A stretch of 64,000 nucleotides of DNA from Streptomyces sp. SN-593 (GTDB taxonomy: Bacteria > Actinomycetota > Actinomycetes > Streptomycetales > Streptomycetaceae), in the NCBI RefSeq assembly GCF_016756395.1, contig NZ_AP018365.1, positions 8,001,501 through 8,065,500 on the forward strand. The letters run 5' to 3'. Made by a program: the position numbers and the translations under genes. The notes under the pieces were generated by a model. It saw only the letters and a program-made list of their open reading frames with translations, ran no database searches and was not told the DNA's origin. Of this stretch, positions 55,829 through 59,051 are shown piece by piece; the stretch's first letter is position 1; each line of letters begins with the position of its first letter.

Positions 55829-56322
55829 GGCCCTGGGAGTACGCGGACGCGCCCGCCGCCGAGACGGCGGACCCGGGTGGGTCGGCGGCCGGGGCGGGAA
55901 CGGCGGACCCGGGTGGGTCGGCGGCCGGGGCGCAAACGGCGCCCGGCCCCGTACCGGACTCCGGCGCCGAGCCGCCCGCGGGCGGCCGGGAGGTCGTCCT
56001 GCGCGCGGTACGCTGCCTGACCTGCCGGCACCTTTCCTTCCCCCCGCAGACCTACGGCTGTGAGCTGTGCGGTGCGTACGGCGACGCCCTCCAGCCCACC
56101 CTCCTCCCCGGGCGCGGCACGGTCCTGGCCGCGGTGGCCCTGCCCGGCGACTCCGACGCCGGACGCCCGGCGGCGCTGCTGGCCGAGGTCCGGCTCGCCG
56201 AGGATGTCGTGGTCCGTGCGCTGGCGGGAGCCCCGGCCGCCCCCGGCACGCCGGTCCGCGCGGTCGCCGGCACCTTCATGGGACGCGACACCGTCCTCAT
56301 GGTGCCGGAGGAGGGCGTATGA
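55825..56322 (+). CDS. OB-fold protein with rubredoxin-like zinc ribbon (DUF35 type)
   Basis: 165 residues from GTG 55825, translationally coupled to the ligase by a GTGA overlap. The zinc ribbon is CLTCRHLSFPPQTYGCELCG, followed by an OB-fold (GRGTVLAAVALPGD, LLAEVRLAEDVVVRALAG, VRAVAGTFMGRDTVLMV). The N-terminal ~50 residues hold a duplicated ADPGGSAAGA unit. DUF35 proteins form complexes with SCPx-type thiolases and stabilise acyl-CoA or retro-aldol steps in steroid side-chain degradation. The partner thiolase would be the gene at 57883, now separated by the IS110 element, which inserted right at this gene's stop codon. Confidence 0.9.
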   Translation: MRPWEYADAPAAETADPGGSAAGAGTADPGGSAAGAQTAPGPVPDSGAEPPAGGREVVLRAVRCLTCRHLSFPPQTYGCELCGAYGDALQPTLLPGRGTVLAAVALPGDSDAGRPAALLAEVRLAEDVVVRALAGAPAAPGTPVRAVAGTFMGRDTVLMVPEEGV

Positions 56323-56339
56323 GTTTCCTGAGTCAACCT

Positions 56340-57593
56340 CTATGCCGCCAGGGGGGCGTCGGCGGTCGTGTTGATCTTGTTGTTGGCTTGGTGGATGTCG
56401 GGGTCGTAGCAGGTGCCGGTGCGCCAGCAGGCCCACATCACCCGGAGCCAGGATCGGGCGAGGATTCGGACGGCGTGGGGGTGCCGCTTTTTGCGGGCCC
56501 GGGCGTCGTCGTAGATCTTGGCGGCCCACTGGCTGCCGTGTCGGCTGTTGTCGGCGAAGGTCGTGAGCGCGACGCGGGCTCTGCGGTTGGTCGCGAAGCG
56601 GAAAGCGACTGTGCGGGACTTGCCCGAGGCGCGGGTCACGGGGACGACGCCGGCTTCGGCGATCAGCTGTTCGCAGGTCTGGGCGCGTTCCAGGAGCGGG
56701 CCGATCTCGCCGATGACCTGGCCGAGGCTGATCGTGCCGATGCGCGGCAGGGTGGCGAACAGCGGCGCGTAAGGGTGCGTGGCGGTGGCCTCGGTGATGG
56801 CCTTGTCCAGGGCGCGGATGGTCGCGCGTATGCCGTGCACGAGCTGGACCTGGACACGGATGAGGTGCTCGACGACCGTCTCGCTGAGGCGGGAGGCGGC
56901 TGTGGGGGCCGAGCGCAGGCGTTCGATGAGGACGCTGCCGGGCTTCTTGCCGCAGTAGCCACGGCGTTTGCACCAGGTTTCCAGGCGCCCCGCGGTGAGC
57001 TTGGCGGCGGAGGCCGGGGTCGGGTAACGCTCCAGGAAGGCCTGGGCGATGTCGCTGTCGAGCTTGCCGAAGACTGCCTTGCCGCCGGGCCAGTGTTCGT
57101 CCAGGAGCGCGGCGAGTTGGTTGACGGCGGCGATGCGGGCCTCGATGTGGTCGGCGCGCTGGCGGGTGAGGGCCTGCAGGTCGAGAGTGGCCGGCTCGGT
57201 GGGCTCCAGCCGGGGCAGCAGGTGGCCGTCGGTGCGCAGGTAGTCGGCGAGTTTCATGCTGTCGCCGGCGTCGGTCTTGGCTTTGGAAGCGCCCCAGCGT
57301 GCCCGCATCGCGTGAAAGGCGTTCGGGTGCACCGGCACCACCGGGTGCCCGGCGGCCAGGAGCCGGTCGACGGCCAGGCCCCTGGTGGTCTCGATGGCGA
57401 CCGGCAGGTCCGCGGGATCTCCGTGCTTGCGCAGCCGGGCCAGGGTCTTGGCGAACCCTTCCTCGGTGTGGGTCAGTTCCCACCGGTCGATGCGTTTGCC
57501 GGTGTCGTCCATGACCGTCACGTCGTGCGTTTCGGTCGCCCAGTCCCATCCGATGAACACGTGCGTCGTACTCCTGTACCGCTGGCGGAGCAC
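56340..57593 (-). CDS. IS110-family transposase (DEDD/Ser recombinase)
   Basis: 417 residues from GTG 57593. The N-terminal RuvC-like DEDD domain has FIGWDWATETHDVTVMDD, the glutamate in VAIETTRGLAVDRLL and KTDAGDSMKLADYLR. The C-terminal Tnp_IS116/IS110/IS902 domain has LPRIGTISLGQVIGEIGPL, then LIAEAGVVPVTRASGKSRTV with the expected serine, and SQWAAKIYDDARARKKRHPHAVRILARSWLRVMWACW. The gene is full length and without frameshifts, so the element may be active. Its 3' end is only 16 bases from the inferred right end of the element. Confidence 0.95.
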   Translation of the reverse strand: MLRQRYRSTTHVFIGWDWATETHDVTVMDDTGKRIDRWELTHTEEGFAKTLARLRKHGDPADLPVAIETTRGLAVDRLLAAGHPVVPVHPNAFHAMRARWGASKAKTDAGDSMKLADYLRTDGHLLPRLEPTEPATLDLQALTRQRADHIEARIAAVNQLAALLDEHWPGGKAVFGKLDSDIAQAFLERYPTPASAAKLTAGRLETWCKRRGYCGKKPGSVLIERLRSAPTAASRLSETVVEHLIRVQVQLVHGIRATIRALDKAITEATATHPYAPLFATLPRIGTISLGQVIGEIGPLLERAQTCEQLIAEAGVVPVTRASGKSRTVAFRFATNRRARVALTTFADNSRHGSQWAAKIYDDARARKKRHPHAVRILARSWLRVMWACWRTGTCYDPDIHQANNKINTTADAPLAA

Positions 57594-57802
57594 CTGCCCG
57601 GTGGTGAGGTCGTCTGCCGGGAGCTCATTAATCGGCCCTCTGCGGGGCGTGTCCCTGAAGCCGATCAGACGGCCTCGGCCCGGCAGGGCTGGCAGAACTC
57701 ACGCTGGCCGTCGAACGGCTCGCGACGATGGCCATGCACCCGCCGGGACCGAGAGGTCACAACCCTACCGAAGAGGGCTGCAGAAGGGATGGTCCTCTAA
57801 TG
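57594..57802 (-). ncRNA. Putative IS110 bridge RNA locus (5' non-coding end of the element)
   Basis: IS110 recombinases are guided by a structured RNA from the non-coding end next to the transposase start. This 209-bp region is on the same strand and of the right size. It contains TAATGAGC (as RNA strand; plus 57623-57630 is GCTCATTA), the exact complement of the element junction GCTCATTA, which includes the CT core and first bases of the element. That is what a donor-binding guide would look like. Short stems such as CCCTcttcggtAGGG-like at about 57765-57780 are also visible. The RNA ends are not defined. Confidence 0.6.
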
Positions 57803-57882
57803 AGCGGCCGGCCCGTCATGGGGGCCGGCCGGTTCCGCACCGGGCACGCACGTCCCCGGCGACCGCGCGAGAAGGAGTGACC

Positions 57883-59051
<1,169 letters not shown>

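What the first reader, a model, noticed from the sequence alone, without database searches (positions are those of the whole stretch)
56324..57802. IS110 insertion precisely at a gene junction, with a readable donor guide in the putative bridge RNA
Minus-strand CTCAT occurs at both junctions; excision restores GGGCGTATG-AG-CGGCCGG, a TGA/ATG overlap at the OB-fold stop. The 5' non-coding end contains TAATGAGC, the complement of the junction GCTCATTA including the CT core, as expected for donor recognition by an IS110 bridge RNA. The element is intact and probably recent, and it may be polar on the thiolase.
Basis: partly seen in the sequence, partly recalled or inferred. Interest (0 to 1): 0.6.

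Follow-up and report, generated by a model that had tools for sequence, protein, structure and literature searches.

The report
RNA-guided insert that restores start codons
A small jumping gene in a soil-type bacterium uses an RNA guide to insert into the start signal of host genes, and its own end supplies a replacement start codon, which suggests that it can land without silencing the gene it interrupts.

Summary
56324-57802 is an intact IS110-group element (minus strand). Five near-identical copies in the host genome have identical ends and a CT core. Its 5' non-coding end folds into a two-loop bridge RNA. I also found the left and right target guides; both covary with the flanks of their own copies across relatives (0 of 20,000 permutations for each side).

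In every relative the right target guide keeps RTGAG, a start codon plus AG that contains a TGA stop. By a codon model, 25 of 33 insertions lie at a gene start and/or stop, against 21 of 239 background RTGAGC sites. The element's end supplies ATG or GTG in 40 of 40 copies, so the start codon is given back. An antisense frame running from the host start codon through the whole element stays open in 39 of 40 copies; the exception has a frameshifted transposase. Transposase codons that would put stops in that frame are absent.

This matches the start-site targeting and 'hed' frame reported for IS900, now tied to a bridge RNA. Polarity on the thiolase is untested, but the anatomy argues against it. 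New variant of a known kind.

The parts
56324..57802 (-). IS110-group insertion sequence, 1479 bases (core CT not counted)
   Evidence: five copies with the same ends in the host genome; 37 full-length copies and relatives
56322..56323 (.). core dinucleotide (AG plus / CT minus), copy at the right end (RE) side
57803..57804 (.). core dinucleotide (AG plus / CT minus), copy at the left end (LE) side
56340..57593 (-). DEDD transposase/recombinase (417 aa from the first GTG; annotators start the relatives about 33 bases later)
   Evidence: Pfam DEDD_Tnp_IS110 1.1e-31 and Transposase_20 2.6e-9; annotated relatives
57675..57752 (-). bridge RNA target-binding stem-loop
   Evidence: fold z -4.1 for 57675-57762; pair counts
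57722..57729 (-). left target guide ATCGTCGC
   Evidence: covaries with left flanks, 0 of 20000 permutations
57698..57705 (-). right target guide AGCGTGAG (reads RTGAG of the host start)
   Evidence: covaries with right flanks, 0 of 20000 permutations
57608..57674 (-). bridge RNA donor-binding stem-loop
   Evidence: (z -1.1, not significant alone)
57652..57659 (-). left donor guide TTCAGGGA, resembling the right end TCAGGAAA
   Evidence: changes together with the right end in L066, L069, L061
   Evidence: pairs with LE CTCATTA; LE CTCACTA goes with guide TTAGTGAG in L066 and L061
56319..57800 (+). antisense (hed-like) open frame: starts at the host-side ATG, runs through the whole element, stops at TAA (next codon TGA)
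57800..57802 (+). element-supplied ATG that replaces the host start codon (TAATG, then ATGA with the core)
   Evidence: ATG or GTG here in 40 of 40 loci
57800..57880 (+). 26-codon frame opened by the restored ATG, ending 2 bases before the thiolase start
   Evidence: sequence
57883..59019 (+). thiolase-like lipid-transfer protein gene
   Evidence: Pfam Thiolase_C_1 2.1e-32, NCBIfam

Best explanation
This is an IS110-group element whose bridge RNA target loop is written to read the beginning of host genes. The right target guide pairs with a start codon plus AG (RTGAG, which also contains a TGA stop). The left guide pairs with GAGC and the next few bases, i.e. the Ser codon after Met and what follows. 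The recombinase joins target and circular donor at the CT core. Because the donor's right half also reads CTCAY, the left end of the element puts a fresh ATG or GTG in front of AGC, so the downstream coding sequence gets a start codon back, and an upstream gene that ends in RTGA keeps its stop. The host ribosome-binding site and original start codon now open an antisense frame that runs through the whole element and stops on the new start codon. The steps from sequence to insertion site and start-codon return are shown by comparison. That ribosomes translate this frame and re-initiate on the host gene, making the insertion largely non-polar, is inferred.
For: Guide-target match: 33 left sites 188 of 264 against a permuted mean of 143.9, 37 right sites 252.5 of 296 against 212.0, 0 of 20000 permutations each; one site per distinct guide, 0 of 20000 (16 left guides) and 5 of 20000 (9 right guides). 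Compensatory donor changes in L066 and L061. Gene boundaries: 25 of 33 sites against 21 of 239 background RTGAGC sites (Fisher 3e-16). Restored frames with a Pfam family over its cut-off: 16 of 27 submitted. In all 6 loci whose records list genes there (L079-L083, L085; 4 independent sites) the annotated gene starts exactly on the element-supplied ATG. Empty sites. Antisense frame open in 39 of 40 loci. No TTA, CTA or TCA codon in 6480 transposase codons of 16 lineages, against 35 in 21 other IS110 transposases. 0 changes to or from an A ending in 48 TCN/CTN columns against 156 in 219 other fourfold columns. Frame free of stops through the bridge RNA gene in 29 of 29, with paired -1/+1 indels in L085 and +3/+6 indels elsewhere.
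Against: No transcript, translation or transposition data. Eight of 33 sites are not boundaries by the model (L003, L004, L037, L043, L067, L059, L048, L069). Some guides fit poorly (L082 4 of 8 left and 5 of 8 right; L040 3.5 of 8 left). The antisense amino-acid sequence is poorly kept (59-74% identity against 76-89% for the transposase), so only openness looks selected. The codon-aligned antisense frame is easily open in GC-rich genes: 9 of 21 control IS110 transposases also lack such codons. The donor stem-loop alone is not unusually stable.
Confidence: 0.72

Rival explanations
1. The guide-directed insertion is real, but start-site preference is mostly survivorship: the guide hits many sites, and only copies at harmless places last.
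For: In the host genome 16 of 30 fetched guide-like sites keep RTGAGC, and 7 of these 16 are gene boundaries, fewer than the 25 of 33 seen for insertions; so selection may add to guide choice.
Against: Guide-like sites are already far richer in boundaries than plain RTGAGC sites (21 of 239), so the guide itself encodes start-like sequence; the RTGAG part never drifts while its neighbours do.
Confidence: 0.35
2. The antisense frame encodes a functional protein (Hed, as proposed for IS900), and start-site targeting serves to express it.
For: The frame is kept open through 486-494 codons, including the RNA gene; IS900 is described with a hed frame that spans the element and lacks its own start (passages of PMC8141618).
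Against: Antisense amino-acid identity is well below that of the transposase, and fourfold sites of the transposase, which are first codon positions of the antisense frame, differ at 25-42%.
Confidence: 0.2
3. The open antisense frame is a by-product of GC-rich codon use and has no role.
For: Codon-aligned antisense frames are often open in such genomes; 9 of 21 control transposases have none of the three codons.
Against: 0 against about 11.6 expected changes after scaling by the control ratio; openness extends through the non-coding RNA gene with frame-keeping indels.
Confidence: 0.15

Closest known systems
IS621 / IS110-group bridge RNA system (PMC11208160, passages read)
   Same: DEDD recombinase, long non-coding left end, two-loop RNA with left and right guides for target and donor, CT core, core included in all pairings
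   Different: target is a start codon context; donor and target share CTCAY so the start codon is regenerated; an antisense frame crosses the element. The term counts for that paper give no IS900 and no start codon
IS900 of Mycobacterium avium subsp. paratuberculosis (passages of PMC8141618; Doran 1997 seen only as a reference entry)
   Same: IS110 family, inserts at translation start signals, complementary-strand hed frame spans the element and borrows the host start
   Different: reported target CATGNNNNNNTCTCCTT, reaching into the ribosome-binding site, against CTCAY here; regeneration of the start codon and a bridge RNA for it were not stated in the passages seen; IS900 sequence was not compared here
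seekRNA elements of IS1111/IS110 type (PMC11187229, passages read)
   Same: non-coding RNA that selects the target
   Different: no start-codon targeting in the passages seen and no mention of IS900 in the term counts

Membership tests
IS110 family, IS110 group | DEDD (RuvC-like) transposase with Transposase_20 C-terminal domain | tested here: met
   Pfam 1.1e-31 and 2.6e-9, both over cut-off. A solved-structure sequence search found nothing at E 0.01
IS110 family, IS110 group | long left non-coding end upstream of the gene, short right end | tested here: met
   209 bases before the gene, 16 after it
IS110 family, IS110 group | dinucleotide core, exact ends in all copies | tested here: met
   CT core, five copies
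IS110 family, IS110 group | no long terminal inverted repeats | not tested
   no inverted-repeat search was run
bridge RNA system | two-loop RNA structure supported by comparison | tested here: met
   98.3% of 800 cells paired, 4 of 40 pairs with changes on both sides, 0 of 500 shuffles as high
bridge RNA system | guides covary with target | tested here: met
bridge RNA system | guides covary with donor ends | tested here: met
   few lineages vary: L066 and L061 right donor guide, L066, L069 and L061 left donor guide; L043 is an exception
bridge RNA system | RNA expressed and required for recombination; circular form | not testable with these tools
   -
IS900-like start-site elements | insertion at translation start signals | tested here: met
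   20 of 33 sites are gene starts by the model against 16 of 239 background
IS900-like start-site elements | complementary-strand frame spanning the element, opened by the host start | tested here: met
   39 of 40 loci
IS900-like start-site elements | common descent with IS900 | not tested
   IS900 sequence was not fetched

The most novel reading that the evidence does not exclude
A clade of bridge-RNA transposons that aims at translation starts and behaves as a translated, start-codon-returning cassette: host ribosomes enter at the old start codon, cross the element in an antisense frame kept open by selection even inside the guide-RNA gene, and re-initiate on a new start codon supplied by the element, so operons keep working. 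One stretch of DNA would then serve as guide-RNA gene, transposase gene and antisense translation path.
Probability: 0.45. Interest if true: 0.78.

Novelty: new variant of a known kind. Interest (0 to 1): 0.62.

Why it matters
It connects a 1997 report (IS900 targets translation starts and has a hed frame) to the 2024 bridge RNA mechanism, through guides that can be read directly. It shows how an RNA-guided transposon can choose a target class that is abundant and nearly harmless, with a wobble position that lets one guide read both ATG and GTG starts. It also makes the long-standing question of what the hed frame is for directly testable: put stops into it and measure the host gene. For genome engineering it offers a bridge recombinase whose natural sites are gene starts and whose insertion returns the start codon.

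Tried and rejected
Rfam search gave only a sub-threshold Twister-sister match across the left junction (21.8 bits against a cut-off of 34, E 0.13); rejected as chance. A sigma-70 and terminator scan of 57500-57900 found nothing. A solved-structure sequence search found no match. The empty site of the window copy was sought in 394 genomes and not found. A Mycobacterium avium plasmid relative (L119) has the codon-aligned antisense frame open, but I could not define its ends from the one stretch read. Distant relatives at 36-40% identity have this frame free of stops within the transposase frame in 4 of 5 (L123-L126 yes, L122 no), which is weak because such frames are often open by chance. L069 breaks the pattern, but its transposase frame is itself split. 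The codon count and the parsimony test rest on 24 of 30 distinct elements, because my motif missed 6 (L083, L059, L053, L066, L069, L061); reduces these 24 to 16 lineages. The full-length antisense reading covers all 40 loci.

Full report
CHECK. The sequence shows a minus-strand IS110 element at 56324-57802 with CT (AG on plus) on both sides. The protein matches Pfam DEDD_Tnp_IS110 and Transposase_20. Thirty-seven loci, these five included, carry a full-length copy or relative at about 82% identity or more, ending in the same way. With L066, L069 and L061 from more distant genera added, 40 loci and 30 distinct sequences were analysed. At the L002 site a relative carries the uninterrupted sequence at 93% identity; at the L005 site the relatives have RTGAG^C at the same place, with ATG and GTG alternating. 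The window copy has no empty counterpart in 394 genomes.

BRIDGE RNA. The 209 bases before the gene fold at -97.7 kcal/mol, z -2.7. The target stem-loop alone gives z -4.1; the donor stem-loop alone gives z -1.1, which is not significant. On 20 distinct sequences a two-loop structure pairs 98.3% of 800 cells, with 4 of 40 pairs changed on both sides (12 cells, 0 of 500 shuffles as high) and 31-52% paired when slid. The shuffle test ignores relatedness, so this is support, not proof. The guides sit in the two internal loops. Left target guide ATCGTCGC and right target guide AGCGTGAG in the window copy are replaced by other words in relatives, and the flanks change with them. Own guides fit own flanks better than any of 20,000 permutations, left (33 sites) and right (37 sites). 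With one site per distinct guide the counts are 0 of 20,000 (16 left guides) and 5 of 20,000 (9 right guides). Clear cases: guide CTGTGAG with targets CTCACAG (L067, L047, L046, L048, L059, L053, L069); guide AAGTGAG with CTCACTT (L084); guide CAATGAG with CTCATTG (L066). Poor cases: L082 and L040. On the donor side, left end CTCATTA goes with guide TTAATGAG and CTCACTA with TTAGTGAG (L066, L061); L043 is an exception.

WHAT IS TARGETED. Every right target guide keeps RTGAG. Where the guide has A at the R position the target is ATG in 24 of 24 loci; where it has G the target is GTG in 12 of 16 and ATG, by a G-T wobble, in 4 of 16, all in the window's lineage and its nearest relative (counted). 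A codon-model test on the 33 events with enough flank (two repeats of one plasmid site and five contig-end loci left out) gene starts and 16 gene stops, 11 of them both; 25 of 33 are boundaries, against 21 of 239 RTGAGC sites in the window and three annotated plasmid stretches (Fisher 3e-16). In the three plasmid stretches 7 of 185 RTGAGC sites are annotated starts. In the six loci whose records list genes there (four independent sites), the annotated gene starts exactly on the element's own ATG. Of 27 restored frames given to Pfam, 16 match a family over its cut-off and L063 falls just short; short-chain dehydrogenase (L002, L041), galactokinase (L073) and a hydroxyisobutyrate-dehydrogenase type (L066) match from residues 3-9 on. 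Part of the preference is in the guide: 30 of 283 guide-like sites of the host genome were fetched, 16 of these keep RTGAGC, and 7 of the 16 are boundaries. Survivorship may add the rest.

START CODON RETURNED. The left end of the element reads, on the host strand, TAATG in 37 of 40 loci, TAGTG in 2 and CAATG in 1. With the AG core this gives RTGAG again, so the downstream coding sequence regains a start codon and the upstream gene keeps its TGA. The change from TAATG to TAGTG keeps both a stop and a start, and its donor guide changes with it.

ANTISENSE FRAME. From the host start codon a frame runs through the entire element and ends at the new start codon; it is open in 39 of 40 loci. The exception, L069, has a split transposase frame too. 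Because this frame is codon-aligned with the transposase, its stops would come from sense TTA, CTA and TCA, which are rare in GC-rich genes, so I tested it. None occurs in 6480 codons of 16 lineages, whereas 21 other IS110 transposases hold 35 and 12 of those 21 have at least one. Codons ending in A are otherwise common in this clade: 156 parsimony changes in 219 fourfold columns against 0 in 48 TCN/CTN columns, where 34 are expected naively and about 11.6 after scaling by the control ratio of 0.34. In the RNA gene region the same frame has no stop in 29 of 29 sequences, while the next antisense frame has 0-2 and the third 2-4. Its indels keep the frame: -1 and +1 in L085, +3 in L052, +6 in L061. 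Amino acids are not kept: 59-74% antisense identity against 76-89% for the transposase. The parsimonious reading is selection to keep ribosomes moving rather than for a protein.

HOW IT WORKS. Shown by comparison: guides, core, site class, returned start codon, open frame. Known from the literature passages read: bridge RNA pairing and core logic (PMC11208160), and an IS900 hed frame spanning that element (PMC8141618). Inferred: translation of the antisense frame and re-initiation. In the window copy the chain would be: upstream gene, stop TGA 56320-56322 overlapping ATG 56319; antisense frame 56319-57800; new ATG 57800; 26-codon frame to 57880; thiolase GTG 57883. Polarity on the thiolase is therefore not the expected outcome, but it has not been measured.

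KNOWN OR NEW. The passages and listings seen contain no link between bridge RNAs and start-codon targeting or IS900. This covers only the held open-access library, without preprints, so it is not a claim of priority.

Noticed in passing
L005 and L038 (1272-2273 -): Copies in the window's genome and in Actinopolymorpha pittospori sit at what looks like the same junction of two ABC transporter genes (both downstream frames match ABC_membrane, similar leaders by eye), so the same site may have been hit twice independently.
   Followed up: partly
L083: On a Streptomyces plasmid the element sits at the start of another mobile element's integrase-type gene (rve domain), and the annotated gene uses the IS110 element's ATG.
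   Followed up: no
window's genome, other places: The host carries 15 strong DEDD_Tnp_IS110 matches, five of them this element; two other IS110 types (423 and 420 aa frames) appear four times each and could be read for guides in the same way.
   Followed up: no
L046, L047, L059, L067: Copies of the CTGTGAG-guide lineage (Streptomyces olivoreticuli, S. diacarni) open only 4-29 codons downstream; L046 and L047 are scored as gene stops (CTG TGA) rather than starts, so this lineage may have drifted to gene ends.
   Followed up: partly
L119 (1144-3126): An IS110 relative on a Mycobacterium avium plasmid also has the codon-aligned antisense frame open beyond both ends of its transposase gene.
   Followed up: partly
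57789-57875 (-): Sub-threshold Twister-sister ribozyme match across the left junction, probably chance.
   Followed up: no
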